Below are positions 26,488 to 64,000 of a stretch of 64,000 nt of DNA, piece by piece; within the stretch, counting starts at the first letter, position 1; each line of letters begins with the position of its first letter. The notes below the pieces were generated by a model, which saw only the letters and a list, made by a program, of their open reading frames with translations, had not been told where the DNA came from and ran no database searches. This stretch comes from Oceanisphaera avium (lineage in GTDB: Bacteria > Pseudomonadota > Gammaproteobacteria > Enterobacterales > Aeromonadaceae): contig NZ_CP021376.1 in the NCBI RefSeq assembly GCF_002157875.1, positions 186,001 to 250,000 of the forward strand, in the 5' to 3' direction. The translations under genes were made by a program, and so were the position numbers.

Positions 26488-26504
26488 GATTTAAGATAGT
26501 CCCA

Positions 26505-26580: not shown

Positions 26581-26632
26581 AATTAAATAAAGTTAGGGTT
26601 TAGCCAACTGCGAAACGTTAACTGAAATCCCA

Positions 26633-26708
26633 GGGTGATTAGCTCAGCTGGGAGAGCACCTCCCTTACAAGGAGGGGGTCACTGGTTCGAGCCCAGTATC
26701 ACCCACCA
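26633..26708 (+). tRNA. tRNA-Val (anticodon UAC), copy 2
   Basis: Identical to copy 1 and exactly 128 bp after it. The spacer with AAAGTTAGGGTTTAGCC also recurs, marking a duplicated unit. Confidence 0.98.
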
Positions 26709-26760
26709 AATTAAGTAAAGTTAGGGTTTAGCCCACCGCGAAACGCTAACTGAAAGCCCA

Positions 26761-26836
26761 GGGTGATTAGCTCAGCTGGGAGAGCACCTCCCTTACAAGG
26801 AGGGGGTCACTGGTTCGAGCCCAGTATCACCCACCA
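26761..26836 (+). tRNA. tRNA-Val (anticodon UAC), copy 3
   Basis: Identical to the other Val copies and 128 bp after copy 2, the last member of the 128-bp units. Confidence 0.98.
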
Positions 26837-26865
26837 TATTTAGTAGTAAGTAATACCGATTTATC

Positions 26866-26941
26866 GGGGCATTAGCTCAGTTGGTAGAGCAGTTGACTTT
26901 TAATCAATTGGTCGCAGGTTCGAATCCCGCATGCCCCACCA
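26866..26941 (+). tRNA. tRNA-Lys (anticodon UUU), copy 2
   Basis: Identical to Lys copy 1. First Lys of the 198-bp Lys-Val repeat series. Confidence 0.98.
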
Positions 26942-26958
26942 GATTTAAGACAGTCCCA

Positions 26959-27034
26959 GGGTGATTAGCTCAGCTGGGAGAGCACCTCCCTTACAAGGAG
27001 GGGGTCACTGGTTCGAGCCCAGTATCACCCACCA
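26959..27034 (+). tRNA. tRNA-Val (anticodon UAC), copy 4
   Basis: Identical to other Val copies. It is 17 bp after its Lys partner, the same spacing as the first Lys-Val pair. Confidence 0.98.
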
Positions 27035-27063
27035 TATTTAGTAGTAAGTAATACCGATTTATC

Positions 27064-27139
27064 GGGGCATTAGCTCAGTTGGTAGAGCAGTTGACTTTTA
27101 ATCAATTGGTCGCAGGTTCGAATCCCGCATGCCCCACCA
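27064..27139 (+). tRNA. tRNA-Lys (anticodon UUU), copy 3
   Basis: Identical Lys copy, exactly 198 bp after Lys copy 2. Confidence 0.98.
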
Positions 27140-27156
27140 GATTTAAGATAGTCCCA

Positions 27157-27232
27157 GGGTGATTAGCTCAGCTGGGAGAGCACCTCCCTTACAAGGAGGG
27201 GGTCACTGGTTCGAGCCCAGTATCACCCACCA
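27157..27232 (+). tRNA. tRNA-Val (anticodon UAC), copy 5
   Basis: Identical Val copy, exactly 198 bp after Val copy 4. Confidence 0.98.
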
Positions 27233-27261
27233 TATTTAGCAGTAAGCAATACCGATTTATC

Positions 27262-27337
27262 GGGGCATTAGCTCAGTTGGTAGAGCAGTTGACTTTTAAT
27301 CAATTGGTCGCAGGTTCGAATCCCGCATGCCCCACCA
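27262..27337 (+). tRNA. tRNA-Lys (anticodon UUU), copy 4
   Basis: Identical Lys copy, 198 bp after Lys copy 3. Confidence 0.98.
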
Positions 27338-27354
27338 GATTTAAGACAGTCCCA

Positions 27355-27430
27355 GGGTGATTAGCTCAGCTGGGAGAGCACCTCCCTTACAAGGAGGGGG
27401 TCACTGGTTCGAGCCCAGTATCACCCACCA
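27355..27430 (+). tRNA. tRNA-Val (anticodon UAC), copy 6
   Basis: Identical Val copy, 198 bp after Val copy 5. Confidence 0.98.
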
Positions 27431-27459
27431 TATTTAGCAGTAAATAATACCGATTTATC

Positions 27460-27535
27460 GGGGCATTAGCTCAGTTGGTAGAGCAGTTGACTTTTAATCA
27501 ATTGGTCGCAGGTTCGAATCCCGCATGCCCCACCA
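27460..27535 (+). tRNA. tRNA-Lys (anticodon UUU), copy 5
   Basis: Last tRNA of the array, 198 bp after Lys copy 4. The next gene is nadA, as in E. coli. No clear terminator hairpin follows. Confidence 0.98.
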
Positions 27536-40281: not shown

Positions 40282-40285
40282 GATT

Positions 40286-40330
40286 TGGTCGGCGTGAGAG
40301 GATTCGAACCTCCGACCCCTAACACCCCAT
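40286..40330 (-). pseudogene. 3' half of tRNA-Pro(GGG): element attachment site (att)
   Basis: On the reverse strand this reads ATGGGGTGTTAGGGGTCGG, T arm GGAGGTTCGAATCCTCT, acceptor CACGCCG and ACCA. It fits the 3' half of a proline tRNA from the GGG anticodon loop to CCA. The 5' half (acceptor CGGCGTG) is not upstream; sequence diverges at the anticodon loop. With an integrase 180 bp away, this is best read as the host-side remnant left by integration; the intact tRNA gene should be at the far end. Confidence 0.82.
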
Positions 40331-40511: not shown

Positions 40512-41834
40512 ATGGCTAATATCACTGATAAATCATTACGAGCAAAAGCAACTTCCAAAAGCCAGTGGCTACGTGAGTCGATGATCTGGGGCCATGGTTC
40601 TCTTCTTGCAAGAATAACTCCTGCCGGTGAGAGACTCTTCTATTTTGAGTATACCAACTCCAACAAAAAAAGAGTGACACTGCCTATTGGTACATTTGGA
40701 GCTAAAGAAGGCCTGATTAGTTTGGCGGTTGCCAGGCAGAAAGCCATGCAGTTGGCATCGTTACACAAAGAGGGGTACGTCGACCTAAAAGAGCACCTTG
40801 AGCAGGAAGAGCAGCTTCAAGCTATTGCTCGAGAGTCACAACTTGCTAAAGATAGGGCAGAGCGAGCTGCTGTAGAGGCTCAAGTTACGGTACGTGAGCT
40901 ATTCGAGCACTGGGCTCAGGTTGTTTTAGTTAATCGTAAAGATGGTGGCGCAGAAATACGTCGGATGTTTAATAAGGATGTGCTGCCTATCATCGGCGAC
41001 ATATATGTTGCTGACGTGAAAAAGGGCCATATCACCTTAGTAACCGATAAACTTCTTGCTCGGCAAGTAAACAATACTGCTAAGAGAGCTTTGGCATTAA
41101 TGCGGCAAATGTTTAGGTTTGCGGTTGATCGAGATATTATTGAGCACGATCCCACCGCTAGTCTTCGTAAAGCGAGTATTGGCGGCAAGACGGTAGAGCG
41201 AGACCGTATATTAAGTGAAGATGAGATCCAGCTCTTAGCTATGAAGCTACCCAAAGCTAACCTATTACTGACTTCTCAGATTGCAGTCTGGCTTAGCTTA
41301 TCTACTTGCTGCCGGATAGGGGAGTTACTATCAGCGAAGTGGAAGCATCTAGACTTTGATAAGGGTATCTGGACCATCCCTCCGGAGAATAGTAAAAACG
41401 GTAAGCTGCACACCGTTTATTTGTCAGAATTCAGTAAGCAGAAGTTTCTAGAGTTAAAGCGCATCAATGGCGACTTTGTTTACTGCTATCCAAACCGTGC
41501 TGGTGATAACCATATCTGCACTAAGACGGTGACTAGGCAGTTAAGTGATAGACAAAAACAAGGTGAGCAGGAAGCTTATTCCAATCGTAGTAAGCATAAA
41601 GAAGCCTTGGTGCTATCACATGGCGGCAAGTGGACACCGCACGATCTAAGGCGTACAGGTGCGACTCTAATGACCGCTTTAGGGGTATTACCTGAAGTAG
41701 CAGAGCGCTGCCTTAACCATACGGATGACAACAAAGTTAGACGCATTTACCAGCGCTACAGCTACCAAGACGAGATGGCTGATGCCTGGCGTTTGCTGGG
41801 TGAGCATATTAGTAAATTAACTTCTATAAATTAA
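40512..41834 (+). CDS. int: Tyrosine integrase (P4-like, DUF4102 type)
   Basis: A 440-residue recombinase. N-terminal arm-binding DUF4102-like domain (about 20-90: LARITPAGERLFYFEY, KRVTLPIGTFG), core-binding SAM-like domain (about 120-210), catalytic domain with CCRIGELLSAKW (Arg I near 269), HDLRRTGATLM (His/Arg near 376-379), NHTDDNKVRRIYQRYSY with the presumed nucleophile Tyr near 414-419. It sits beside the tRNA-Pro fragment and reads into the element, so it is the element's own integrase. The catalytic Tyr cannot be fixed among the three nearby tyrosines. Confidence 0.93.
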   Translation: MANITDKSLRAKATSKSQWLRESMIWGHGSLLARITPAGERLFYFEYTNSNKKRVTLPIGTFGAKEGLISLAVARQKAMQLASLHKEGYVDLKEHLEQEEQLQAIARESQLAKDRAERAAVEAQVTVRELFEHWAQVVLVNRKDGGAEIRRMFNKDVLPIIGDIYVADVKKGHITLVTDKLLARQVNNTAKRALALMRQMFRFAVDRDIIEHDPTASLRKASIGGKTVERDRILSEDEIQLLAMKLPKANLLLTSQIAVWLSLSTCCRIGELLSAKWKHLDFDKGIWTIPPENSKNGKLHTVYLSEFSKQKFLELKRINGDFVYCYPNRAGDNHICTKTVTRQLSDRQKQGEQEAYSNRSKHKEALVLSHGGKWTPHDLRRTGATLMTALGVLPEVAERCLNHTDDNKVRRIYQRYSYQDEMADAWRLLGEHISKLTSIN

Positions 41835-48966: not shown

Positions 48967-49368
48967 TTAACCTGCGCACTCGCCTTCCCATTCTTCAATC
49001 ATGTCATAACGTACAACAGCGTCTTGGCCAACTTCATCACGATACGCTTCTATTTTTTTATCTAAGCATGCGTCCGCACCGCCGTCGTTACACTCGCCTT
49101 CCCATTCTTCAATCATGTCGTGACGCACGATAGCGTCTGGACCAACTTCGTCACGATACGCATCTATTTTTTTATCTAAGCATGCGTCCGCAACGCCACC
49201 GTTACATTCACCTTCCCACTCTTCAAGCATGTCATAACGGACAACAGCTTCTTGACCCACTTCCGCACGGTAGGCGTTTACCTTATCTTCGACGCACGCA
49301 TCTACATTAGCCATGGCATTCGATGTGAGAAAAAACAGCGTCATAGCTAGTAGTGATTTTAACTTCAT
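48967..49368 (-). CDS. Secreted protein of three 38-residue Cys-paired repeats, unknown function
   Basis: A 133-residue protein with an evident Sec signal peptide (MKLKSLLAMTLFFLTSNAMA, cleaved after about residue 20). The rest is three near-identical units starting DACVEDKVNAYRAEVG, DACLDKKIDAYRDEVG and DACLDKKIEAYRDEVG. Each contains VVRYDM or IVRHDM and ends EEWEGEC, so every unit has one Cys at each end and is strongly acidic. Disulfide-closed helical hairpins are a reasonable guess. No family recognised. SD AAGAGAAC before the ATG. It lies alone on the reverse strand between radC-type genes and the TAC module. Confidence 0.8.
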   Translation of the reverse strand: MKLKSLLAMTLFFLTSNAMANVDACVEDKVNAYRAEVGQEAVVRYDMLEEWEGECNGGVADACLDKKIDAYRDEVGPDAIVRHDMIEEWEGECNDGGADACLDKKIEAYRDEVGQDAVVRYDMIEEWEGECAG

Positions 49369-51498: not shown

Positions 51499-51647
51499 GA
51501 TTATCCAATTTTTATTGATTTCAATCCAGTATCAGAGAGCCTAACAAAGCCTCCACCCGAAACCTAGCCTAATACATTGACACAGCTAGCCACTAGCATA
51601 AACTGCACTTAAATGTACTTTTTCGACAAAACAAGAGTCTGTTCGTC

Positions 51648-51848
51648 ATGAGTGATGAAGTGTTAACCATCAAAGAAGTGGCTGAATACCTAAAAGTGAA
51701 TGAGCGTACTATTTATCGGCTTGCAGCCAGTGGCGAATTGCCGGGCTTTCGGGTTGGTAATGCGTGGCGTTTTAAAAAATCTGACCTGGAAGAATGGATT
51801 AGCTCACAGGCAGCCCAAAGTAAAGGAACAGGTAATGGTAATAACTGA
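51648..51848 (+). CDS. Excisionase-type HTH protein, first gene of the defence operon
   Basis: A 66-residue HTH_17/MerR-like protein: VLTIKEVAEYLKVNERTIYR then FRVGNAWRFKKSDLEEWI. Its stop overlaps the helicase start (ATG 51835) by 14 bp, so the two are coupled. Small HTH proteins of this kind are often upstream of restriction or helicase genes as regulators. About the same class as alpA above but different in sequence. Confidence 0.85.
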   Translation: MSDEVLTIKEVAEYLKVNERTIYRLAASGELPGFRVGNAWRFKKSDLEEWISSQAAQSKGTGNGNN

Positions 51849-54729
51849 TTATCAAGCCAAGTACTTCGCGCAAGAGTTAACCATTCGTCATGCTGAAAAC
51901 GGCGTTGATAAGCTGTCGCAATCACTTTTCGATGCGAGTGTCGATCTCAATCCACATCAAATTCATGCCGCTCTTTTTGCTTTAAACAACCCGTTAAGCA
52001 AAGGGGTTGTGTTAGCTGATGAAGTTGGGTTGGGTAAAACCATTGAAGCTGGCCTTGTACTGTCACAGTACTGGGCAGAGCGTAAACGCCAAATTCTAAT
52101 CATCTGTCCGGCCTCATTACGACGTCAGTGGGCACAAGAACTAGGTGAGAAGTTTAATCTGCCGACGCAAATTTTAGACGCAAAAACTTGGCGCACCAGC
52201 ATCAATAATGGGCAAGGAAATCCGCTCGCCAACCAGTGCATTTCTATTATGTCCTATCACTATGCGGCGCGTATGGAAACACAGCTAATGTTGGAGCCAT
52301 GGGACATTGTGGTTATCGACGAAGCACACAAGTTGCGTAATGCGCACCGTAGTAGCAACAGAATGGGTCAAACTTTACGCCGAGCTTTGGAAGGCAGTAA
52401 AAAGTTATTACTCACCGCCACACCGTTACAAAATTCACTGATGGAGTTGTATGGTTTATCAACCATAATCGACGACCAAATTTTTGGTGATGAAAGAAGC
52501 TTCAAACAACAATTTGTAAACAACGAAAGTGCACTAGGGCATTTAAAGAAACGACTTACCGGGTTTATTCAGCGTACTTTGCGAAAGGATGTACTCGAAT
52601 ACGTCCGTTATACCCAACGCCAAACACTCACCATACCGTTTAAACCTTCAAGTGCTGAAATGGCGCTTTACGAGGGCATTAGTGCCTTGTTGGAAAAAGA
52701 AGAAAGCTATGCGCTGCCTAAAAGCCAGCGTCATTTAACAGGGTTAATACTTAGAAAGCTGCTAGCGTCTAGCTCTCACGCTGTACTCAATACACTCGAA
52801 ACGATTAAACGCCGACTAGTTGACCTTAAAGTGCAAACAAAATCCGACCTCGATCTAATCAGTGAGCTTGTTGAAAGTGATGATTTAGGAGAAGAGTACA
52901 GCGAGTATGTTGAAGAAACACAAAGCAATACCCCTGAGAGTGACATTGACTTTGAGTTACTCAATGCTGAGATAGCCGAGCTTGAGCATTATATCGAGCA
53001 GGCTAAATCCATCACCACCGACAGTAAAACCCAAGCCTTGCTAACAGCGCTTAATCAGGGGTTTGCCAAAATGGAGGAGATGGGTGCATCACGTAAAGTC
53101 ATTATTTTTACTGAGTCTAAGCGCACGCAAGAATACCTAGCTCGTTTCCTCGAAGCGAATGGCTTTGCTGATAAATTAGTCACCTTTAATGGCAGCAACA
53201 ACCATCCAGAAGCAACCAAAGTTTATCAGCAGTGGTTAGCTGAAAACCAAGGTAGTGATAAGGTTAGTGGTTCACCGCAAATTGACCGCCGTACCGCCCT
53301 AATTGATTACTTCCGCCATCATGCCGAAGTTATGATCGCAACCGAAGCGGCTGCAGAAGGAGTTAACTTACAGTTCTGTTCGTTACTGATTAACTATGAC
53401 TTGCCATGGAACCCACAACGGGTAGAGCAACGCATTGGCCGTTGTCATCGCTATGGGCAGCAATTCGATGTTGTAGTGATTAACTTTCTTAACGAGGAAA
53501 ACAAAGCCGATCAGCGCGTTTTAGAGTTACTGACTGAAAAATTTCATCTGTTCGATGGCGTGTTTGGTGCATCGGACGATGTGCTAGGCAGTATTGAATC
53601 TGGCATTGATTTTGAAAAACGCATCCAAAATATATACGAGACTTGTCGGCAACCGGCAGAAATAGAAGCAGCTTTTGATCAGCTACAAAAAGAGCTAGAA
53701 GCCGACATTAACCAAAAAGTGCGCGAGACCCAGCAGCTCCTGCTGGAAAATTTCGATGAAGATATTCACGACTTACTGAAAATTCAGCTTGATGCCGCGC
53801 AGCAACGCCTCGATAAAGTAGGCCGCTGGTTCTGGCAACTCAGTACCCATGAGCTTGCTGCTATCGCAGATATCAACCCAAGCAACCATAGCTTTACGCT
53901 TAATCAAAGTATCAATCAGGCTCCTGCAGGTTGCTACCAACTTGTACGCCGAGGACAACAAAGGGCCAGCAATGAAAATGGCAAATTAGCCAATGCCCAC
54001 GTTTACCGTATCACCCACCCATTAGGAGAATGGGTGATCAGCAACGCGCTTCAACGTGAATTACCTATTGCCAGCGTAATTTTTGATTACAGCAACCACC
54101 AAACAAAAATCAGTATGCTAGAACCCTTAGTGGGTTCGTCAGGTGTACTAAGCTTACAAAAATTCAGTGTCGAATCATTGGGGCGTAGCGAAGACCATTT
54201 ATTGTTCGTTGCGCAAGACGAGCATGGCAACCAGCTACCAAGTGAAGTAGTGCAAAAGCTGATGCAGCTCAGTACCTGTGTGCAAAGTGAAGTCAGTGAG
54301 CAAGAACTTGCCGCCTTATATCCGAGCTATCAAAATGCGCTACAGCAAGCGTTACAGCAATCGAGGCTTGGCATCGAAAAGCAAGTCAACGATCGCAATC
54401 TTAGCTTCTTCGAACAAGAGGTTAACAAGTTAGATTCTTGGGCAGACGATTTAAAAGAAGGGCTTGAACAATCTATAAAAGAGCTCGATAAGCAAATCAA
54501 ACAAGTGCGCCGTGAAGCAAAAATTGCCCCCACACTTGAAGAAAAGCTCGCTCTGCAAAAGCAGCAGCGCCAATTAGAAAGTCAGCGTAATAAAAGCCGT
54601 CGTGAATTGTTTGATAAACAAGACGAAGTAGATGAAAAGCGCGAACAGCTTATTGAAAGCTTAGAAGGCAAACTGAATAAAAAAACCAGCCAACAGACCC
54701 TATTTACCATTGGGTGGAGGGTTCAATGA
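51835..54729 (+). CDS. SNF2/RapA-like helicase, defence-associated
   Basis: A 964-residue SF2 helicase. RecA domain 1: LADEVGLGKTIEAG (Walker A about 61-69), DEAH near 162, LTATPLQNSL. Domain 2: ATEAAAEGVNLQFCSLL (about 502-518), RVEQRIGRCHRYGQ (about 525-540). The C-terminal 300 residues are a coiled-coil Gln/Glu/Lys-rich region (LEEKLALQKQQRQLESQRNK). The overall layout is like RapA or the DrmD class. The stop overlaps a following small ORF by ATGA. ATG 51835 preceded by AAGGA. A Mod/Res pair lies downstream, so it probably works with modification or restriction. Confidence 0.9.
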   Translation: MVITDYQAKYFAQELTIRHAENGVDKLSQSLFDASVDLNPHQIHAALFALNNPLSKGVVLADEVGLGKTIEAGLVLSQYWAERKRQILIICPASLRRQWAQELGEKFNLPTQILDAKTWRTSINNGQGNPLANQCISIMSYHYAARMETQLMLEPWDIVVIDEAHKLRNAHRSSNRMGQTLRRALEGSKKLLLTATPLQNSLMELYGLSTIIDDQIFGDERSFKQQFVNNESALGHLKKRLTGFIQRTLRKDVLEYVRYTQRQTLTIPFKPSSAEMALYEGISALLEKEESYALPKSQRHLTGLILRKLLASSSHAVLNTLETIKRRLVDLKVQTKSDLDLISELVESDDLGEEYSEYVEETQSNTPESDIDFELLNAEIAELEHYIEQAKSITTDSKTQALLTALNQGFAKMEEMGASRKVIIFTESKRTQEYLARFLEANGFADKLVTFNGSNNHPEATKVYQQWLAENQGSDKVSGSPQIDRRTALIDYFRHHAEVMIATEAAAEGVNLQFCSLLINYDLPWNPQRVEQRIGRCHRYGQQFDVVVINFLNEENKADQRVLELLTEKFHLFDGVFGASDDVLGSIESGIDFEKRIQNIYETCRQPAEIEAAFDQLQKELEADINQKVRETQQLLLENFDEDIHDLLKIQLDAAQQRLDKVGRWFWQLSTHELAAIADINPSNHSFTLNQSINQAPAGCYQLVRRGQQRASNENGKLANAHVYRITHPLGEWVISNALQRELPIASVIFDYSNHQTKISMLEPLVGSSGVLSLQKFSVESLGRSEDHLLFVAQDEHGNQLPSEVVQKLMQLSTCVQSEVSEQELAALYPSYQNALQQALQQSRLGIEKQVNDRNLSFFEQEVNKLDSWADDLKEGLEQSIKELDKQIKQVRREAKIAPTLEEKLALQKQQRQLESQRNKSRRELFDKQDEVDEKREQLIESLEGKLNKKTSQQTLFTIGWRVQ

Positions 54730-54890
54730 TGACAATCAATTTCAACACCAGCATTGACTTTTTTCAGTTTGGGGCTATGATCACTGCAACAACACCCCTC
54801 CCGCTACCCGTCAGATCAGCGCCCTGTGAGGGGTTACTCGTTTCTGGGGCCTGCAAAACACTATTTCCTGCTGTATTGGTGGTCAAATGA
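54726..54890 (+). CDS. Possible 54-residue ORF linking helicase and Abi gene
   Basis: ATG 54726 overlaps the helicase stop in ATGA, and its TGA (54888-54890) overlaps the Abi ATG in the same manner. The product ([20 protein letters not shown]..., ending LFPAVLVVK) has no recognised family. The two 4-base overlaps are the main support; the composition is hydrophobic. It may be a genuine coupling peptide or a chance frame in a 158-bp spacer. Confidence 0.4.
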
Positions 54891-55816
54891 GCCGCAAATC
54901 GCCCCCTAAAGTCGCGTTTACCAAACCACCTACAAGCTTTACCGAGCAAGTCCGCTTGCTCCAACAACGTGGCCTAGTGATCAGTGATGTCCCTAAAGCC
55001 GAGTTTTATCTCGCACAGCTGAACTACTATCGTTTTGCGGCTTATTGTTTGCCCTATGAGCAAGATCACGCCAGCCATACCTTTATAGCTGGCACTCAGT
55101 TTGAGCAAATTCTAAACCTATACGTGTTTGACCGTGAACTACGTTTGTTAGTGCTAGACGCCATCGAACGTTTTGAAGTATCACTGCGCACCCAAATCGC
55201 GTATCAGTTGAGCCAAAAATACCAAACGGCGCATCCTCATTTAAAGCCAGAACTCTTTGGTGATTTATTAGAGTATGCCAGCAGTCTTGGTAAGCTCACA
55301 AGTGAGGTAAAGCGCAGTCGCGAGGAGTTTATTAAACACCTGACGCAAAAGTACCAAGAACCACTACCACCTATTTGGACTTGTGTTGAATTGTTAACCA
55401 TGGGGCAGCTTTCTCGTTGGTATAGCAATATAAAGCTGCGTGCCGACCGCCAAGTAATAAGCAAAAGCTACGGACTAGATGAAAAAACCATTACCTCATT
55501 CTGTGAACATTTGTCGCTAGTGCGCAATGTAAGTGCCCATCATTCTAGGCTGTGGAACCGTGACTTTACCAAAACCACTATAATACCACGCAATGGCGAA
55601 CCAGCACTGATTCAAAGCTTGCAGAATCTGCCCGATAGCGACCGGCGTTTACGAAAAATTTATAACACCTTGGTGATGTTGGGCTACCTCATGGATGTGA
55701 TCAGTGGTGAACACCATTGGAAGCAACGTCTCATTCAATTGATTAATCATCATCAAATAGACATTGGCCGCATGGGCTTTCCTGCCGACTGGCAAGCGCG
55801 GCCAATTTGGCAATAA
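54887..55816 (+). CDS. Abi_2 family (AbiD/AbiF-like) protein
   Basis: A 309-residue Abi_2 protein. The signature stretch is [20 protein letters not shown] followed by [25 protein letters not shown]-type RNVSAH (R213 to H218) lies in [16 protein letters not shown], giving the RxxxxH of RNase-like HEPN proteins. Abi_2 members trigger abortive infection, probably through RNA cleavage. Starts 158 bp after the helicase, overlapping the small ORF; ends 17 bp before AIPR translation. Confidence 0.88.
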
Positions 55817-55833
55817 AAATAAGGACAACTCAC

Positions 55834-57672
55834 TTGGCAGCATTACAAGCACAATTTATTGTCCCATTAAAAGACTTGCTTCAGCAGCGTTTTGTGCCGC
55901 ATTTACCGTCATTGCTTGGGCAAGGTGGAAGGGAAGATAAACCTAAAAAACAAATTTCTAGGGCTTTTAGTGCTTTCGTACTTCAGCAAAAATTCGATTT
56001 AGACGTAGTGACTGCGGCAAAAGCCGTGGTGGACGACTATGCAGATTATGGTATCGATGCCATCTATTATCACGAAGCTGATCAAACTCTATATTTGGTT
56101 CAGTCAAAAATGAAGGAAGATGCGCAATTCCAATTGGGCGAAGCGCAGGCATTTATTGAAGGCGTAAAATTACTTTTAAACAAGCAATTTCAACGTTTTA
56201 ATCAAAATGTACAAAACCTTCAAACAGAAATAGAAGCCGCATTAGATGAGTGCGAACACATTCAATTGCTTGTCGCATACACAGGTAATGGCATTACTAT
56301 TCAGGCTCAAAACTACCTGAAGCCAGCGATACAAGAGCTGATTGAAGAAGGTGAAGAGCAAATCGCACCAGATTATCAAGAGTACACCGCTACCGAAGTT
56401 GAACAGGCACTTCGCAGTGAACATGCGGTCGATGCTGTAAACGAGCGTGTCGCGGTTTACAAATTTCGCGTGCAAGAGCAACCGCGAAAAGTGGTGTTTG
56501 GTATCGCTAAGTTAACCGACCTTATAGCATTGCACACCACCTACGACCGTAAACTTTACGAAAAAAACATTCGCTACTTTATTGGTGCTGGCAGACGAGG
56601 GGTGAACAAGGCTATTAAAGATACGCTTTTACATGAGCCGGAGAACTTTATTTATCTTAATAACGGCATCACTCTGATTGGTAACACAGTCAAGCCAAAA
56701 GGCAATATTAGAGGGCACACAGGCAGCAAGCATGTTGCAGTCGATGGCCTATCAGTCGTTAATGGCGCACAAACTATTGCCAGTGCTGCGCAGTTTATGC
56801 GTGAAAATCCAGAGGCCGATATTAGCCAAGCCCAAGTGATGGTAACTATTATCAACACGGGTAACGACGCTTTTCACAAGCAAGTAACCAAAGCGCGTAA
56901 CTTACAAAATCCAGTCGATTTAGGCAATTTTGCTGCGCTGGATGATACCCAAGAACGCTTGCGCCAAGAGATCAAAATGTTCGGTGTCGAATATCTCTAC
57001 CGCCCACAACAAACCCCAGCAGCGGGTATTCGCAGTATCACTATCGACACCTTGGCAAAAGCGTTAGCCTGTATGCAAGTTGATGTACGCATGCCTTATC
57101 AGCTAAAAGTAGAGCCAAGCAAATTTACTAACCAAGAAAGCACAGAATACCAAGCCATTTTTAGTGCAGATTTACAGGGTGCCGTCGCCATTAACGCAGT
57201 GAACTGTTGCTTGGCGATACAAGGCTTATGCACTGCCGCGGAGCGCAGTAATCCAAGCCCCGAAAAACTGATCTATCGCCATTTTACTTACTGCATAACC
57301 ACGCTATTAATGGCGCAGTTTAAAGGCGCTATTACTGCCCCCGAGATTACTGAACAAACAGAATTTAAAGGGTTAATTAGTCGCGCCTTTGATGAACTTC
57401 GTCAGCAATTTTTTGATAGTTTTACAGTATTAGCATTAGGCAGTGCGCCGCACGCGTATTTCAAACGCCTTGGCGATACCGCACTCTTAATGAAAACGGT
57501 GTGGATAAATCATTTAAACTTGGCAGAGCACCCTGCTGTGATAGCAAAACAAGAGCGCCTTCAGGCGAACGACCCACACAACCAGAATTTATTCAGTTAT
57601 TTAGCTGAACAAGCACAACGCCGGCAAGGGAAAAACGCACAAGCTGCTAATCGGCAAACACAACCAGCGTAG
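55834..57672 (+). CDS. AIPR family (abortive infection phage resistance) protein
   Basis: About 612 residues. The AIPR domain is marked by YADYGIDAIYYHEADQTLYL then VQSKMKEDAQF, an endonuclease-like strand pair (GIDA ... VQSK), and FIYLNNGITLIGN, VDGLSVVNGAQTIASAA, TKARNLQNPVDLGNFAALD. I prefer TTG 55834, which has AAGGA about 8 bp upstream and gives MAALQAQFIVPLKD; another TTG at 55807 overlaps the Abi gene. AIPR proteins occur in restriction-linked defence loci; the GID/QxK pair suggests nuclease activity, inferred. Confidence 0.85.
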   Translation: MAALQAQFIVPLKDLLQQRFVPHLPSLLGQGGREDKPKKQISRAFSAFVLQQKFDLDVVTAAKAVVDDYADYGIDAIYYHEADQTLYLVQSKMKEDAQFQLGEAQAFIEGVKLLLNKQFQRFNQNVQNLQTEIEAALDECEHIQLLVAYTGNGITIQAQNYLKPAIQELIEEGEEQIAPDYQEYTATEVEQALRSEHAVDAVNERVAVYKFRVQEQPRKVVFGIAKLTDLIALHTTYDRKLYEKNIRYFIGAGRRGVNKAIKDTLLHEPENFIYLNNGITLIGNTVKPKGNIRGHTGSKHVAVDGLSVVNGAQTIASAAQFMRENPEADISQAQVMVTIINTGNDAFHKQVTKARNLQNPVDLGNFAALDDTQERLRQEIKMFGVEYLYRPQQTPAAGIRSITIDTLAKALACMQVDVRMPYQLKVEPSKFTNQESTEYQAIFSADLQGAVAINAVNCCLAIQGLCTAAERSNPSPEKLIYRHFTYCITTLLMAQFKGAITAPEITEQTEFKGLISRAFDELRQQFFDSFTVLALGSAPHAYFKRLGDTALLMKTVWINHLNLAEHPAVIAKQERLQANDPHNQNLFSYLAEQAQRRQGKNAQAANRQTQPA

Positions 57673-57724
57673 CGTGTATAACAAATAAGCTAAGTAATGA
57701 ACACAAAATAAGAGCACAGAAATT

Positions 57725-59380
57725 ATGAGCAAAACCAAATTAGAACTGACCTGGATAGGCAAAAACGAGCGTAAAAAGCTAGAGCCGCGCATTTTATTGG
57801 AAGACCCTAGTAAGTCTTACCATGCAAGCCAAAAAGTCACCGATAACGATATTTTTGATAATAAGCTGATTTTTGGCGATAACTTATTGGCGTTGAAGGC
57901 GTTAGAGCAAGAGTATGCAGGGCAAGTGAAATGTATTTTTATCGATCCTCCGTATAACACTGGCAGCGCTTTTGAACACTACGACGATGGTATTGAGCAT
58001 TCGGTCTGGCTTTCCCTTATGAGTGAACGCTTGAGACTACTGCAAAGACTTTTAAGGCAAGACGGGATCATCTTTATTCAAATAGATGATCGAGAGCATG
58101 CGTATTTAAAAGTTTTATGTGACGAGATTTTCGAAAGAAGGAACTTTATAACATCAGTGACTGTTCAAATGAGTCATTTGAGTGGTGTAAAAATGAGCCA
58201 CGTAGAGAAAAATATCCCTAAGATCAAGGAGCATATACTTGTATATTCGAACTCCCCAGATTTTAAGTTTAATAAAGTCTTCGTTAAAGCTGACTGGGAT
58301 TCAACATTTTCACGTTATCGCAGTTTTCTATCTTGTGAGCCCTCGGAACCAATTGAAACTTGGACTGTAGAACCTTTAGGTGCTGTGATCAAAAGTAAGA
58401 ATTTGTCAGGTGACTCACTAGAGAAGTTTTTATTAAAAAATGCGCATCGTATTTTCAGGACTGCGAGGAACCGTTCCGAAGTATTTATGACTTTACCGAA
58501 AGATGAACAATTTAGAGCTATTAAAACCTCATCAGGATTAGATAAGTATGCATATAAGGGGGAAGAGGTTTTATTTTGCTCTGAAAAGTTAGTCGATATT
58601 GATGGTGAAAATGTACCAGCTAAACCATTAGGTGATATTTGGCTCGATATAGGTATCAACAATTTGCATAACGAAGGCTCTGTGGATTTTAGGAACGGAA
58701 AAAAACCAGAGAAGCTAGTAAAGCGTTGCATAGACCTGAGCACAAATCCTGGCGATCTTGTGCTTGATTCTTTCGGTGGCTCAGGCACAACAGGTGCAGT
58801 TGCACACAAGATGGGACGTCGCTGGATTATGGTTGAATTGGGCGAACATTGTCATACCCATATCATTCCGCGTTTACAAAAAGTCATAGATGGCGAAGAA
58901 CAAGGCGGCATTTCTAAAGCCGTTAACTGGCAAGGTGGTGGTGGCTTCCGTTATTACAAACTTGCTCCCTCGTTGATTGTTAAAGATAAGTTTGGCTTGG
59001 AAGTGATCAACAAAGAGTACAACCCAGAAATGCTTGCTGAAGCCGTTTGTAAATTGGAAGGCTTTACCTATGCGCCATCGGTAGTTGATTGGTGGGATCA
59101 TGGTTACTCAACCGAAACTGACCATATTTACGTTACCACGCAAAGCTTGTCGGTCGAAAAACTAGAAGCATTGTCTGAAGAAGTAGGCAGTGACCGAACC
59201 TTATTGGTGATGTGTGGCGCATTTCGCTGTGAAGTGAGTCGCTTTGCCAATTTAACTCTGAAAAAACTACCTAAAGCTATCTTAGATAAGTGCCAATTTG
59301 GCCAGGACGATTATTCGTTAAATGTGGCCAATTTAACGGATGATGCTTCTGACGAGAGCGACGCACAGCAAGATGATTAA
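57725..59380 (+). CDS. mod: Type III-like DNA methyltransferase (Mod)
   Basis: A 551-residue beta-class N6-adenine methyltransferase. Motif IV FIDPPYNTG (DPPY at 74-77) comes before motif I DSFGGSGTTG (about 348-357), the type III order. Between them residues 130-310 form the probable target-recognition domain, where base composition turns clearly AT-rich (58130-58660), as in exchangeable TRDs. The C-terminus (about 400-551) is a further domain with an acidic end. Followed 20 bp later by the Res-like gene. Recognition sequence unknown. Confidence 0.92.
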   Translation: MSKTKLELTWIGKNERKKLEPRILLEDPSKSYHASQKVTDNDIFDNKLIFGDNLLALKALEQEYAGQVKCIFIDPPYNTGSAFEHYDDGIEHSVWLSLMSERLRLLQRLLRQDGIIFIQIDDREHAYLKVLCDEIFERRNFITSVTVQMSHLSGVKMSHVEKNIPKIKEHILVYSNSPDFKFNKVFVKADWDSTFSRYRSFLSCEPSEPIETWTVEPLGAVIKSKNLSGDSLEKFLLKNAHRIFRTARNRSEVFMTLPKDEQFRAIKTSSGLDKYAYKGEEVLFCSEKLVDIDGENVPAKPLGDIWLDIGINNLHNEGSVDFRNGKKPEKLVKRCIDLSTNPGDLVLDSFGGSGTTGAVAHKMGRRWIMVELGEHCHTHIIPRLQKVIDGEEQGGISKAVNWQGGGGFRYYKLAPSLIVKDKFGLEVINKEYNPEMLAEAVCKLEGFTYAPSVVDWWDHGYSTETDHIYVTTQSLSVEKLEALSEEVGSDRTLLVMCGAFRCEVSRFANLTLKKLPKAILDKCQFGQDDYSLNVANLTDDASDESDAQQDD

Positions 59381-59400
59381 CGGTTAAAAGGATAATTATA

Positions 59401-62139
59401 ATGACCATGGATTTATCAAGCCTAAAACCTGAACAGTTACGCGCCATTAATAACGTAATTGGCCGTTTAAGTTTGCGCCAGCCGCAGCAAGACTCGCTAC
59501 GTGCTTTGGCAGTGGCGATTAGCGCCTCAGAGCATAAACTGCTTAATCCAAAACGCGATGTACCAGAATTATTAGAAACCCTAAAAACGCAGTTCCCTAA
59601 GCTCAGTGATTTTGAGCGTGACTTTCCATCACTCTGTTTTGCCTTGGCAACGGGTGTAGGTAAAACTCGTTTGATGGGCGCATTTATTACCTATTTGTAT
59701 CAGGTGCACGGCATTCGTAATTATTTTGTGTTGGCACCTAATCTAACCATTTATGAAAAATTGATTAGTGATTTCTCACCAGCTTCGCCTAAATATGTGT
59801 TAAAAGGCATTACCGATTTTGTGCTGGCACCGCCAGAAGTGATCACCGGTGATAACTATGAAAGCCGTGGCGCACAGATACAAAGTGACCTATTCGGCTC
59901 AGTGCGTATTAATGTATTCAACATCGCCAAAATTAATACCGAAGTGCGTGGTGGCAAAGCCCCGCGTATTAAGCGTTTAGCGGAAACCCTAGGCGAGAGT
60001 TACTTTGAGTATTTATCGAACTTACCTGATTTAGTGCTATTAATGGACGAATCGCACCGCTACCGTGCCGATGCCGGTATGCGTGCGCTCAATGAGCTCA
60101 ACCCCTTGTTTGCTTTAGAGCTAACGGCAACGCCATTTACAGAGTCAAGCCGCGGTCCGGTACACTTTAAAAACGTGGTGATTGATTATCCTCTAGCCTG
60201 CGCTATGGATGATGGTTTTGTAAAAGAGCCTGCGGTAGTGACTCAGCGTAACTTTGATGCCAGCCAGTATGACAAAGATGAGCTCGAAACCATTAAGTTA
60301 ATGGATGGTATTCGTCTACATGAGCAAACCAAGGTGGATTTAACCACTTATGCACACGAAAACGATGCGAAGTTGGTTAAGCCCTTTATGTTGGTGATTG
60401 CCCGTGATACCACCCATGCCGCAGAGCTGCTAACTAAGCTTGAAAGTGTATTTGAAGGGCGCTACCGCGGCAAAGTGATTCAGGTTGATAGTAGCAAAAA
60501 AGAAGAAGAAACCATTCAGGCACTGCTAAACGTTGAGCATGTGGATGAGCCCACCGAGATTGTGATCCACGTAAACATGCTTAAAGAAGGGTGGGACGTA
60601 ACTAACCTGTACACCATCGTACCGCTGCGTGCCGCCAACGCTAGAACTCTAATTGAACAGTCGATTGGCCGTGGTTTACGTTTACCTTATGGCAAACGTA
60701 CTGGTGTGGAAGCTGTCGACACACTAAGTATTGTCGCCCATGATAAATTCCAGGAAATTGTTGATGAGGCCAACGATCCAAACAATCCACTGCGCCTGAA
60801 AACGCGAGTATTAGATCGCCCAGAAGATGATGTAACCAAACAAAGTGTGCAGATTAAATCGAATCTAGAGCAGCAACTTACTGGCTCAGGTATTACTGCG
60901 ACCGGCGCCGATGGCACTCGTGTGGTACAAGCGTCTAAAGCGACTTACACCACGCAAAATCAACAAACCGTTGCCCGCGCCGCCCTGGATGTCATCAAGC
61001 AATATCAAAGCCGACCAAGTGATGCGCCAACCAGTAGAGCTTTGTTAAATAACGAAGTGAAAGCTCAGATTACTGAGCAGGTTAAAGCTCAGCTAACCCA
61101 AGAACAGCACAAATTGTTTACCAATGAGTCTGTAGATATTGCTGCAATTGTTGAGCAAGTGACGCAGCTAACGGTAGATAACACCATCGATATTCCACGG
61201 ATTATCGTATCGCCATCGGGCGAAGTATGCACAGGCTATCATCCGTTTGATTTGGATATTGCCGCCATTAAAGGCTTAAGGCCAATGGACCGCACTCTCA
61301 TACAACAAAGTTTACAAGACAATCACCAAACCATTCGTGGCGAAGGGGATTCGGGCAACAACGAGCCGGTGAAGCAGAACTACATTTTGAAAAAACTGTT
61401 CGATTACGACGATATTCCTTACGACGAGCAAGCTGAGCTTTTGTTTGATCTAGCTACTCAAGCAGTCAATACACTGGCGGCTGAAAACGAGGAAGATGTG
61501 GTTGAGGACATTCTGCAAAACCAAAGTGATGCTATTGCGAAGTTAATTCATGCGCAACTAAACAACCACTTCTTTGAAGAAGCAACCGAGTACGTCGTCG
61601 ATGTACGTAGTGGCTTTAGCACCCTACGTGAATGTGCCTATACCATAGCCCAAGATCAGCCGGTGCAAAATTACCGTGATACCGTACGCGATGTCAGTCG
61701 CATCAAACAAATGCTCTTTGGCGGTTTTAGCCGTTGTTTATACCCGCTGCAAAAGTTTGACTCAGACACTGAACGCCGTTTTGCGGTGATCTTGGAGCGT
61801 GATTGCGAGAAGTGGTTTAAGCCTGCCAAAGGCCAATTCAAGATGTACTACAAACGCGGTAGTGAGCACCCTGAGTACGTACCGGACTTTGTGGTCGAAA
61901 CCGCAGACTATGTTTTGATGATTGAAACCAAAAGTACACAACATCAGAACCAAGATGGCAGTTGGAGTGAAGAAGTAACAGAAAAATCGCGCAGCGGTGT
62001 GAAGTGGTGTAATCAAGCCAGTGAATACCTAGCCCAATACGACGGTAAGCCTTGGAAGTACTTATTGATCCCGCATGATGCTGTGAAAGAAGCCAACTCG
62101 TTGGATTATTTTGTACAGCAGTTTACTCAAGCGGATTAA
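59401..62139 (+). CDS. res: Type III restriction helicase-nuclease (Res)
   Basis: A 912-residue SF2 translocase. Walker A LATGVGKTRLM (about 81-91), DESH (216-219), LTATPFTESS, helicase C EGWDVTNLYTIVPLRA and IEQSIGRGLRLP. C-terminal nuclease: EYVPDFV (P828, D829) then VLMIETKS (E842, K844), the PD-D/E-X-K arrangement. All expected motifs are present, so it looks intact and active. With Mod it would restrict DNA carrying unmodified sites. A terminator-like hairpin ends the operon. Confidence 0.93.
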   Translation: MTMDLSSLKPEQLRAINNVIGRLSLRQPQQDSLRALAVAISASEHKLLNPKRDVPELLETLKTQFPKLSDFERDFPSLCFALATGVGKTRLMGAFITYLYQVHGIRNYFVLAPNLTIYEKLISDFSPASPKYVLKGITDFVLAPPEVITGDNYESRGAQIQSDLFGSVRINVFNIAKINTEVRGGKAPRIKRLAETLGESYFEYLSNLPDLVLLMDESHRYRADAGMRALNELNPLFALELTATPFTESSRGPVHFKNVVIDYPLACAMDDGFVKEPAVVTQRNFDASQYDKDELETIKLMDGIRLHEQTKVDLTTYAHENDAKLVKPFMLVIARDTTHAAELLTKLESVFEGRYRGKVIQVDSSKKEEETIQALLNVEHVDEPTEIVIHVNMLKEGWDVTNLYTIVPLRAANARTLIEQSIGRGLRLPYGKRTGVEAVDTLSIVAHDKFQEIVDEANDPNNPLRLKTRVLDRPEDDVTKQSVQIKSNLEQQLTGSGITATGADGTRVVQASKATYTTQNQQTVARAALDVIKQYQSRPSDAPTSRALLNNEVKAQITEQVKAQLTQEQHKLFTNESVDIAAIVEQVTQLTVDNTIDIPRIIVSPSGEVCTGYHPFDLDIAAIKGLRPMDRTLIQQSLQDNHQTIRGEGDSGNNEPVKQNYILKKLFDYDDIPYDEQAELLFDLATQAVNTLAAENEEDVVEDILQNQSDAIAKLIHAQLNNHFFEEATEYVVDVRSGFSTLRECAYTIAQDQPVQNYRDTVRDVSRIKQMLFGGFSRCLYPLQKFDSDTERRFAVILERDCEKWFKPAKGQFKMYYKRGSEHPEYVPDFVVETADYVLMIETKSTQHQNQDGSWSEEVTEKSRSGVKWCNQASEYLAQYDGKPWKYLLIPHDAVKEANSLDYFVQQFTQAD

Positions 62140-62163
62140 ACTACAGTTATATTGGTAATGTAG

Positions 62164-62210
62164 GCTCGGCAGTTTAACAACACTAATTCGTTAAACTGCT
62201 GAGCTTTATT
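62164..62210. terminator. Bidirectional hairpin between res and darG
   Basis: GCTCGGCAGTTTAAC (62164-62178) pairs with GTTAAACTGCTGAGC (62190-62204) with one mismatch, followed by TTTATTT. It sits between convergent genes. Confidence 0.8.
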
Positions 62211-62237
62211 TAAATTATTTTTAAAAAACACTGATTT

Positions 62238-63275
62238 TTATGTTATCCATCCTTTATTACTTAGTACTTTTACAGCAAGTGAGATTTGACGAGGGGTAAA
62301 TTGCCGTTTGCGCTCATTCCAAGCATAAGTGTGATTCATAACATCATCTATGGAGCTCACTGGATGGTTTTTCATTACCCAGTGGACCGTTGCAAGCAAC
62401 TCTAAGCCGAATGGAGATTCAAAGCCTTCAACTAACTCGGCTACCTTATCAAAGCGTGCGCTTGTTTCAGGAGAACGCTCCAAAAAATCAGAAGCTTGTT
62501 TGGTAGCTCCTTCTATTAGCATCAATTGTTTAGCTGGTGCATCACCACCATCGGCATAGCCGGATACAAAGTGCCCCTCGATCACATTTAAAACATGGCG
62601 TAGATTTTCTGCATAAGGTCCATAAGGTGCCTGCTTGTACCTTAAACGTAACGGCTCACCCGCTTCTTGCATAAAATACATCAACTTATGCACTTCCAGC
62701 AGGGTAACAAATGGGTCAAGTAAACCTCCAAGGTAGCGTCGCATCAACTCTACTAAAGCCGCACGACCAGCAGTCATCTTTGGTACCTCACGCTTATGGA
62801 CCATTTTTTCTGCACTTGGAGCACCTATCGGTTCGTAAATTGTGATATCAACGTCAGTAAGTGAGCACAAAGCGACTTCTATTCGAGCCTTAACCTCTGA
62901 CCACTCTAGACCACCTAAGCCGCTACCAAGTGGAGGGATGGCAATAGATGAAAGATTGTAATGGCGAATAGTTTCTACTAGTGCTTGAAGGCCCGTTTCT
63001 ATGTCTTCTATTCGACTATTACTACGCCAATGGCGCTTGGTTGGGAAGTTGATTATGTAGCGTGGGTTAGTTAACTGACCACTATCAAATACAAACATTT
63101 TACCAGGTAGCACTTCGTCTCGTTTGCAGGCAGCAGCATAGGCTTTAAAATTATCAGGAAAAGCATTTTTAAACTGAAGTGCCAAGCCACGCCCCATGAT
63201 TCCAACACAGTTTACAGTGTTGATAAGTGCATCGGCATCTGATTGAAAAATATCACCTTTTTTATATTTAATCAT
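62238..63275 (-). CDS. darG: DarG: macro domain antitoxin / DNA ADP-ribosylglycohydrolase
   Basis: About 345 residues from ATG 63275, preceded by TGAGGAGG; an in-frame start at 63293 is unlikely. Macro domain (about 1-150): INTVNCVGIMGRGLALQFK, IINFPTKRHW, PPLGSGLGGLEW. A C-terminal domain (about 165-345: LMRRYLGGLLDPFVTLLEVH, YKQAPYGPYAENLRHVLN) matches the DarG region that sequesters DarT. It reverses DarT's ADP-ribose marks on thymidine. The gene begins 14 bp after the DarT stop. Confidence 0.93.
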   Translation of the reverse strand: MIKYKKGDIFQSDADALINTVNCVGIMGRGLALQFKNAFPDNFKAYAAACKRDEVLPGKMFVFDSGQLTNPRYIINFPTKRHWRSNSRIEDIETGLQALVETIRHYNLSSIAIPPLGSGLGGLEWSEVKARIEVALCSLTDVDITIYEPIGAPSAEKMVHKREVPKMTAGRAALVELMRRYLGGLLDPFVTLLEVHKLMYFMQEAGEPLRLRYKQAPYGPYAENLRHVLNVIEGHFVSGYADGGDAPAKQLMLIEGATKQASDFLERSPETSARFDKVAELVEGFESPFGLELLATVHWVMKNHPVSSIDDVMNHTYAWNERKRQFTPRQISLAVKVLSNKGWIT

Positions 63276-63289
63276 ACTTTCAAACCTCC

Positions 63290-63949
63290 TCAATAATACC
63301 AGTCAGTTTTAATTTCAACTTTAGACTGATGCCCGCCAGCTGCCAGCGCTTGCAACACTTGTTGTTGAACGGCATGAGATTGTACGCCAATACGTTCGAT
63401 CAGTTGCCATGGGAAGCTTTTTTCCATTAAGAATTCAGCTTGCTTTCCCTCTTTAACTCTTGCCGCTACTCCATTCCCACTCCAGCGATGAGTTTGTATC
63501 GCTTCCCAGTTCAGCTCATTTAATTGCGCTACGCTAGCTCGGTCTTCGAAGTAGTAGGCCCCTGCATTTGATAATGTAAAAGCCCAACGAGTATTGTGAT
63601 TTTCAGCCCAATCAATAGCGTCGTATAAATCAGCTTCAAGGTGAATTATTGGCTCCTGCCCACTGCGGTAGCTAAGTTCAGAGTGATTACTTTGGTAGAG
63701 TAGATAAAGCATTATGGATCTTGGGCAAAAGTAAAATGGTACGCAGCCACCCACATAGAGATCAGGATAATTAGTCAACGTTAAGTCATTCAACCGGCGT
63801 TGTTTGATGCTGCTCATACCTATGTTGGTTCCACTTGGAGCAAGGCTAGTGATTGTTGCATCACACCATAAGTACTGATCAGCAAGGATCGAGCATAAGC
63901 GATCAATGTGCACGATATGATATATTTTTGGCCTATGCGGTACAGTCAC
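63290..63949 (-). CDS. darT: DarT: DNA ADP-ribosyltransferase toxin
   Basis: A 219-residue DUF4433/DarT enzyme that ADP-ribosylates single-stranded DNA thymidine with NAD+. Visible segments: IYHIVHIDRLCSILADQYLW, GCVPFYFCPRSIMLYLLY, and catalytic KQAEFLMEKSFPW (Glu172) near the C-terminus. GTG start at 63949 with GAGG upstream. Toxin first, antitoxin second on the reverse strand. The upstream promoter is in the last 51 bp of the window. Confidence 0.92.
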   Translation of the reverse strand: MTVPHRPKIYHIVHIDRLCSILADQYLWCDATITSLAPSGTNIGMSSIKQRRLNDLTLTNYPDLYVGGCVPFYFCPRSIMLYLLYQSNHSELSYRSGQEPIIHLEADLYDAIDWAENHNTRWAFTLSNAGAYYFEDRASVAQLNELNWEAIQTHRWSGNGVAARVKEGKQAEFLMEKSFPWQLIERIGVQSHAVQQQVLQALAAGGHQSKVEIKTDWYY

Positions 63950-64000
63950 GCCTACCTCTACTATGAATTATGCATTACTTGCAGTCTGAGCTTAGCTAGC

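What the first reader, a model, noticed from the sequence alone, without database searches (positions are those of the whole stretch)
51648..62139. Six-gene helicase-Abi-AIPR-Mod-Res operon, a candidate composite defence system
A small HTH gene, SNF2-type helicase, Abi_2/HEPN protein, AIPR protein, type III Mod and type III Res lie on one strand with short gaps or overlaps (14-bp overlap HTH/helicase, 4-bp ATGA overlaps around 54726-54890, 17-bp and 20-bp gaps). All genes look full length with intact motifs (GLGKT, DEAH, RNVSAH, DPPY, FGGSGTT, PD...ETK). I do not recognise this exact combination as a named system. Mod-Res alone is a complete type III system; adding a RapA-like helicase, HEPN and AIPR suggests layered restriction plus abortive infection.
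Basis: partly seen in the sequence, partly recalled or inferred. Interest (0 to 1): 0.86.

Follow-up and report, generated by a model that had tools for sequence, protein, structure and literature searches.

The report
Restriction operon with swappable effector slot
A mobile bacterial antivirus operon joins a DNA-methylating and DNA-cutting enzyme pair with a DNA motor and an exchangeable set of likely suicide genes, and a group of viruses carries a shortened copy of the methylating enzyme of its E. coli counterpart, probably as an escape tool.

Summary
The six-gene operon is real, intact and recurrent. The same order (HTH, SNF2, Abi_2, AIPR, Mod, Res) occurs in E. coli chromosomes at about 87.5% DNA identity (19 of 25 listed rows; 29 of 5,426 genomes match), with dN/dS of 0.03-0.16. 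It is not a fixed six-gene system. The frequent core is a RapA-like SNF2 motor plus type III Mod and Res: of 109 helicase loci, 80 have a linked Mod and 62 are complete; 39 of the 62 carry extra genes, mostly of defence or toxin families, 23 none. No library or paper that I searched names the whole. The "gene" at 54726-54890 is probably a hairpin RNA with its own promoter, found upstream of other Abi_2 genes too: a candidate RNA antitoxin. And 87 phage records carry the E. coli operon's Mod; the copy aligned keeps the recognition domain and lacks about 127 C-terminal residues, the end that in EcoP15I contacts Res: a probable captured counter-defence. Function is untested. Verdict: new variant of a known kind.

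The parts
40285..40330 (.). left 46-bp direct repeat (copy of the 3' end of tRNA-Pro ggg); the right copy lies at 67154-67199 outside the window
   Evidence: exact repeat, island length 26,915 bp; tRNA-Pro at the right copy
40512..41834 (+). tyrosine-recombinase-like integrase of the island (named by reading the sequence; not scanned)
   Evidence: ORF; sits just inside the left repeat
51648..51848 (+). small HTH_17 protein, probable regulator; NCBIfam MAD1-like
   Evidence: PF12728 E 2.2e-21; NF047737 82.7 bits against cut-off 80
51835..54729 (+). RapA-like SNF2 translocase (DrmD-related), 964 aa
54754..54781 (+). sigma-70-like promoter TTGACT-16-TATGAT of the putative RNA
   Evidence: like pairs of hexamers upstream of the hairpin in all 7 other loci scanned there (L031, L024, L033, L035, L039, L161, L162); none in the stretches of L124, L159 and L160 scanned; no chance expectation was computed
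54787..54850 (+). putative abiF-like RNA antitoxin; hairpin 54794-54834
   Evidence: 96.4% of cells paired, 3 pairs changed on both sides in 10 distinct sequences; found upstream of stand-alone Abi genes
54887..55816 (+). Abi_2 / AbiD HEPN protein, predicted RNase toxin
   Evidence: PF07751 E 7.8e-53; AbiD model 247 bits; RNVSAH at 213
55834..57672 (+). AIPR family protein (AbiU model) with a predicted PD-(D/E)XK nuclease domain at its N-terminus
   Evidence: PF10592 E 1.1e-36; AbiU model 124.8 bits; invariant D84, Q99, K101 (numbered from 55807) in 38 sequences; fold like the FokI, MspJI and AspBHI nuclease parts
57725..59380 (+). type III modification subunit (beta-class N6-adenine methyltransferase) with a diverged target recognition domain
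   Evidence: MTase_III 708 bits; EcoP15I Mod hit; 19-52% identity to the E. coli Mod over its residues 101-350 against 76-98% outside
59401..62139 (+). type III restriction subunit (SF2 motor plus PD-(D/E)XK-like C-terminus)
   Evidence: REase_III 627 bits; EcoP15I Res hit; motifs

Best explanation
A composite defence operon on a mobile island. Core: a type III restriction-modification pair (Mod methylates host DNA at a site set by its recognition domain; Mod-Res cuts unmethylated DNA) served by a RapA-like SNF2 translocase that probably strips or moves proteins on the target DNA. The slot between SNF2 and Mod holds back-up effectors, here an Abi_2 HEPN RNase held in check by a short hairpin RNA made from its own promoter, and AIPR, a predicted DNA nuclease. 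If restriction fails, for example because a phage shuts off host transcription and the RNA decays, Abi_2 is freed and stops the cell. Shown here: anatomy, co-inheritance, slot exchange, conservation and pairing of the hairpin, phage copies of the E. coli Mod. Inferred: every activity, the RNA's antitoxin role, the trigger, and what SNF2 does.
For: SNF2 and Res co-occur in 13 genomes against 1.25 expected in 369 genomes of the class (Fisher p 2.7e-13). 62 complete SNF2-Mod-Res loci, 39 with cargo. The operon as a unit in E. coli and on plasmids without AIPR; purifying selection. Abi_2 hairpin with changes on both sides of pairs, seen upstream of stand-alone Abi genes; published precedent for RNA-neutralised AbiF (PMC12373285: abstract, section 7 and passages). 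AIPR nuclease-like fold and invariant residues. Recognition-domain divergence amid conserved neighbours. 87 phage records with the E. coli Mod.
Confidence: 0.6

Rival explanations
1. Carrier only: SNF2-Mod-Res is one defence unit, and Abi_2 with its RNA and AIPR are independent defence or addiction modules that use the operon's transcription and mobility without any mechanistic link.
For: The Abi_2-RNA pair stands alone in Salinimonas and Teredinibacter; cargo swaps freely and 23 of 62 complete loci are empty; AIPR is lost or shortened in several lineages.
Against: Same order and near-equal dS for SNF2, Abi_2 and AIPR (0.58, 0.54, 0.59) point to long joint inheritance; cargo is mostly of effector type and sits inside the operon.
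Confidence: 0.28
2. SNF2 turns the pair into a BREX- or DISARM-like exclusion system in which Mod marks self and SNF2 with Res blocks DNA without classical type III cutting.
For: By sequence the helicase is closest to DrmD and also scores to BREX helicase models; its fold is RapA-like.
Against: Res keeps motor and nuclease motifs; 7 of 19 class genomes with Mod and Res lack this SNF2.
Confidence: 0.1
3. A divergent member of a named system (MADS, DISARM or Hma).
For: NCBI labels the HTH MAD1; the SNF2 scores to DrmD and HmaA models.
Against: DrmD cut-off not reached; no DrmB, DUF499 ATPase or m5C methyltransferase among the matches shown.
Confidence: 0.04

Closest known systems
Type III restriction-modification (EcoP15I, EcoP1I)
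   Same: Mod with recognition domain between motifs IV and I; Res with SF2 motor and C-terminal nuclease motif; adjacent genes
   Different: extra SNF2 motor, HTH gene and effector slot in the operon; Res is only distantly related to EcoP15I Res (29 bits)
DISARM (DrmD)
   Same: DrmD-like SNF2 helicase beside a DNA methyltransferase
   Different: helicase below the DrmD cut-off; no DrmB match shown; Mod-Res pair instead
Hma / DUF499 BREX-related systems and PADLOC's HEC modules
   Same: SNF2 helicase, methyltransferase and third ATPase, with other defence genes embedded; HEC-01 and HEC-03 modules recur in the slot here
   Different: no DUF499 ATPase; type III N6 Mod and Res; helicase far closer to DrmD than to HmaA (699 against 191 bits)
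AbiF with RNA antitoxin RCd22 (RF03085; PMC12373285)
   Same: Abi_2 HEPN gene preceded by promoter and hairpin RNA
   Different: hairpin not recognised by Rfam; one hairpin seen, not two; embedded in an R-M operon
AIPR / AbiU linked to R-M (PMC2292703, PMC3506569)
   Same: AIPR gene in a type III R-M operon
   Different: specific SNF2-Mod-Res core; predicted PD-(D/E)XK domain, whereas PMC3506569 writes of an N-terminal HEPN domain in AIPR

Membership tests
Type III restriction-modification | beta-class N6-adenine Mod with recognition domain between motif IV and motif I | tested here: met
   DPPY at 74, FGGSGTT at 350, diverged segment between; MTase_III 708 bits
Type III restriction-modification | adjacent Res with SF2 motor and PD-(D/E)XK nuclease | tested here: met
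   REase_III 627 bits; GVGKT, DESH, PDFVV...ETK; EcoP15I Res 29 bits
Type III restriction-modification | methylation of one strand and ATP-dependent cutting | not testable with these tools
   needs methylome and enzymology
DISARM | DrmD at its curated cut-off | tested here: not met
   NF038318 700.7 of 950; NF038317 302.9 of 610
DISARM | DrmA helicase and DrmB (components recalled) | tested here: not met
   no DrmB match in the rows shown and the DrmA model hits only the SNF2 gene, at 151 bits; for SNF2 and Mod only 25 of 45 and 25 of 62 rows were shown, the other operon proteins in full
Hma / BR | HmaB m5C methyltransferase and HmaC DUF499 ATPase (PMC8565338, PMC12839542) | tested here: not met
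   the operon's proteins are N6_N4_Mtase and ResIII; no DUF499 match
MADS | MAD1 HTH | tested here: met
   NF047737 82.7 against 80, a narrow pass of a small domain
MADS | remaining mad genes (number and order recalled, no paper read) | tested here: inconclusive
   no other mad model in the rows shown for the operon; only 25 of 45 and 25 of 62 rows shown for SNF2 and Mod
abiF RNA-antitoxin system | Abi_2 protein with HEPN R-X4-H | tested here: met
   PF07751 E 7.8e-53; RNVSAH
abiF RNA-antitoxin system | abiF RNA motif RF03085 upstream | tested here: not met
   no match up to E 1 in the window operon; none at gathering in 7 loci; another paired hairpin is present
abiF RNA-antitoxin system | RNA neutralises the toxin | not testable with these tools
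   needs expression tests
AIPR (PF10592) | AIPR domain above the gathering score | tested here: met
   127.6 against 25 bits
PD-(D/E)XK nucleases (AIPR N-terminus) | core fold with D and (E/Q)-X-K | tested here: inconclusive

The most novel reading that the evidence does not exclude
A general carrier immunity platform: SNF2-Mod-Res senses foreign DNA, or its own defeat by phage methyltransferases and anti-restriction, and licenses whatever effector sits in the slot. In this version the effector is a HEPN RNase guarded by a hairpin RNA plus a DNA nuclease. rV5-like phages answered the E. coli version by taking Mod with its recognition domain and dropping the region that would dock Res.
Probability: 0.3. 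Interest if true: 0.82.

Novelty: new variant of a known kind. Interest (0 to 1): 0.64.

Why it matters
It describes a widespread SNF2-Mod-Res core whose slot samples many effector families, so annotating each gene apart (type III R-M, AbiD, AbiU, HEC-01, IetAS, LmuB) hides one architecture. It offers a direct test of the old idea that restriction and suicide are coupled (PMC3506569): natural versions with both Abi genes, one, or none share closely related cores. The phage Mod is a natural clue to which phages meet the E. coli version and how they may escape it, and the Abi_2 hairpin suggests that RNA-antitoxin HEPN toxins sit inside R-M operons.

Tried and rejected
Named-system readings (DISARM, Hma, MADS) were rejected as filing, for want of components or scores. 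PADLOC's HEC names first suggested that this is Hma; PMC8565338 and PMC12839542 (passages) showed Hma to be a different trio. Passages of RptR (PMC12255303), YprA/ARMADA (PMC12458937), P4 hotspots (PMC9122126) and the NLP paper (PMC9523054) gave no match to this arrangement. PMC8594841 (12 of 31 places shown) gave nothing on the phage Mod. Not-in-print statements rest on the listings, an open-licence library only.

The 54-codon frame at 54726-54890 as a protein was rejected: no Pfam, PADLOC or NCBIfam match (as the 58-aa ORF from 54714), and the window's frame is broken by stops in L024 and L035 while the hairpin stays. The frame is open in close relative L031, so this is not proof.

One viral-contig scan with the Abi_2 protein (close relatives only) gave no relative. 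Foldseek for the whole AIPR model had no significant match; the nuclease reading rests. Single-sequence RNA folds were not better than shuffles (z 1.60, 1.13, 0.58).

The Rfam miRNA hit at 62152-62209 (E 0.17) is taken as a plain inverted repeat, probably a terminator.

The phage Mod was first thought catalytically broken because DPPY was missing; the E. coli and Salmonella Mods have DPPF too, so that idea was dropped.

Full report
OBSERVATION. The six genes are there, on one strand, open and with their motifs. Pfam: HTH_17, SNF2-rel_dom plus Helicase_C, Abi_2, AIPR, N6_N4_Mtase, ResIII. PADLOC: mad1, DrmD (699 bits), AbiD, AbiU, MTase_III (708), REase_III (627). NCBIfam: MAD1 just above its cut-off, DrmD well below it.

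SETTING. The operon lies on a 26,915-bp island between exact 46-bp repeats of the 3' end of tRNA-Pro(ggg), 40285-40330 and 67154-67199, with an integrase-like gene just inside the left repeat and DarT-DarG on the opposite strand next to Res.

THE SAME OPERON ELSEWHERE. Megablast of 51500-63990 matched 29 of 5,426 E. coli genomes. Of 25 rows listed, 19 show AIPR among the features, 5 cover 68% and have a hypothetical protein in its place (in L032 a 206-aa AIPR piece), and 1 covers 53% and lacks it (L033); 4 rows were not shown (L031, L032, L033, L151, L152 read). In the 25 rows the match runs from window base 51666 or 51753, inside the HTH gene, to 62139, the Res stop, so the operon travels without the window's flanks. 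L032, L151 and L152 lie beside tRNA-Sec; no tRNA-Sec is in the stretches read around L031 and L033. Fifteen Salmonella plasmid records match over 53%; the two read, L024 and L025, lack AIPR and have an Abi_2 split into two frames. Against L031, amino-acid identity is SNF2 96, Abi_2 94, AIPR 92, Res 95, HTH 77%. Mod, in 50-residue blocks of the E. coli protein, is 86-98% over the first 100 residues, 19-52% over 101-350 and 76-94% after. dN/dS: SNF2 0.040, Abi_2 0.059, AIPR 0.072, Mod 0.155, Res 0.028; dS 0.58, 0.54, 0.59, 1.77, 0.92. So the five large genes are kept under selection, and the recognition region of Mod appears to have been exchanged. A Methyloprofundus bin contig (L040; SNF2 97% over the 493 residues present) and Nitrincola tapanii (L035; SNF2 73%) have the same gene order from SNF2 on.

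CORE AND SLOT. In 369 genomes of the class, SNF2 (E 1e-100 or better) is in 22, Mod (1e-40) in 24, Res (1e-60) in 21; SNF2 with Res 13 against 1.25 expected, p 2.7e-13; Mod with Res 19, of which 12 have SNF2 and 7 do not. So SNF2 is a frequent but not universal partner. AIPR (E 1e-15) is in 4 of 369, the own genome included. Among the best 120 helicase relatives and the 118 of 120 AIPR relatives with a contig length, 16 contig lengths are shared against a mean of 0.34 (maximum 3) after offsetting. I then read 109 helicase loci from genome contigs, plasmids, E. coli and the class sample. Dropped beforehand: copies of the window's own locus (L001, L002, L135) and short AIPR loci (L136-L138), the short versions L003-L023 (refetched longer), and the duplicates L025, L032, L033, L151, L152. 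Of the 109, 80 have a linked Mod, 62 Mod and Res, 29 no Mod (21 of these cut by a contig or locus end). The loci were chosen by similarity to the SNF2, so this is a survey of its relatives, not of all type III systems. Of 62 complete loci 23 have no extra gene of 100 aa or more and 39 have. In 34 of the 39 at least one extra gene falls into a family of PADLOC or a toxin, nuclease or Schlafen family of Pfam. Labels come from Pfam/PADLOC scans of one representative each spread by phmmer at E 1e-8: AIPR 10, Abi_2 6, HEC-01-like ATPase 5, LmuB-like SMC 5, RhuM 5, DUF4276 4, Schlafen-AlbA and zeta toxin 2 each, and single SIR2, PD-T4-6 kinase, IetAS, GmrSD, NsnA, NsnB, HEC-03, BRO-N, KilA-N and a further SMC/AAA case. 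Fic, HipA, PtuA and an AAA_13 protein (PDC-S06; PrrC/RloC-like by recall) occur in loci where no Res was linked. Four loci have only unknown cargo and one a sigma-70-like gene. Abi_2 plus AIPR together is in 4 of 62, three of them close relatives (window, L031, L040).

THE HAIRPIN. Between SNF2 and Abi_2 lies TTGACT-16-TATGAT and then ACCCCTC-C-CGCT...AGCG...GAGGGGT. The element recurs upstream of Abi_2 in L031, L024, L033, L035, L040, L039 and, more loosely, L124, and upstream of stand-alone Abi genes on Salinimonas and Teredinibacter plasmids (tblastn 42% and 60% to the window's Abi_2). Over 10 distinct sequences 96.4% of cells pair (no shuffle of 500 reaches it; slid versions 36-56%); 3 pairs show changes on both sides (7 of 500 shuffles reach 3), but the number of further pair types is ordinary (220 of 500). 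The alignment is small, the structure came from its own members, and all four changed cells come from L039 and L124. AbiF of C. difficile is toxic and neutralised by a hairpin RNA from just upstream (PMC12373285: abstract, section 7 and passages). I infer the same role here; Rfam does not recognise it as RF03085.

PHAGE COPIES OF MOD. The E. coli operon's Mod matches 87 of 50,697 phage records at 90-99% DNA identity; in the 60 rows shown the match ends at base 1321-1333 of 1707. The five phages read (JES2013, slur16, FV3, slur12, V5) are Vequintavirus; 13 of the 87 records are labelled Campylobacter phages. JES2013 Mod (441 aa) is 95.7% identical to the E. coli Mod, with 94-100% per 50-residue block across the recognition region, and ends where the E. 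coli protein runs on for about 127 residues. Back-searched, it matches 23 of 5,426 E. coli genomes over 80% or more of its length, at 94.3-94.4% in the 23 rows listed, and 97 in any part. In EcoP15I the Mod CTD, its last 106 residues, contacts Res (so does the MTase domain), while the other domains make the stand-alone methyltransferase dimer (PMC4490356, passages). That the missing phage end corresponds to this CTD is judged by position; I did not align them. So the phage copy looks like a methylase without its docking part; the direction of transfer cannot be told. The window's Mod has another recognition domain and about 52-53% identity to the rV5-like copies in the rows shown.

MECHANISM AND NOVELTY. 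The best reading is given above at 0.6. Coupling between restriction and the Abi genes is inferred; the carrier-only rival stands at 0.28. Abi genes in R-M operons and the immunity-suicide idea are in print (PMC2292703, PMC3506569, PMC3710099; passages). The phrase Hma-embedded candidate occurs in PMC12988326 (search listing only); that PADLOC's HEC stands for it is recalled. I found no paper or model for the SNF2-Mod-Res core with its slot (searches; models). I file it as a new variant of a known kind.

Noticed in passing
window 62238-63949, - strand: DarG-DarT pair (NCBIfam 475 and 232 bits), convergent with Res; a second defence module on the same island, apart from the operon.
   Followed up: partly
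L034:2986-4311 and 87 phage records: Phages (Vequintavirus in the five read) carry the E. coli operon's Mod at 90-99% DNA identity; the copy aligned keeps the recognition domain and lacks the C-terminal 127 residues.
   Followed up: partly
L159:5001-5057 and L160:3501-3567: Copies of the Abi_2 hairpin in E. coli E14 (beside a restriction helicase gene) and on a Vibrio cidicii plasmid where tblastn found no Abi_2 in the stretch read; the two share flanking sequence. Orphan antitoxins or relics, unexplained.
   Followed up: partly
E. coli records L031, L032, L033, L151, L152: RefSeq names the HTH of this operon mads1/MAD1 although the operon does not look like MADS; in the window the model passes by 2.7 bits.
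   Followed up: partly
L124:13530-13658: A related Abi_2 gene has a hairpin with a changed stem running into seven T, like an intrinsic terminator, which would fit attenuation before the toxin gene.
   Followed up: partly
window 26412-27535: Array of 11 tRNA genes for Lys (ttt) and Val (tac), largely alternating.
   Followed up: no
window 48967-49368, - strand: 133-aa protein with a signal-like start, made of three near-identical repeats (by eye).
   Followed up: no
window 62152-62209: Inverted repeat between Res and DarG, scored weakly as a miRNA family by Rfam; probably a shared terminator.
   Followed up: no
L140, L141, L145, L146, L150: Of 8 bacterial loci read with Mod and Res but no SNF2 in the stretch, 5 have a gene of 756-780 aa upstream of Mod, the size of the LmuB-like SMC ATPase of the slot: the same cargo may join Mod-Res without SNF2. 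(L150 belongs to a genome with SNF2 on another contig.)
   Followed up: no
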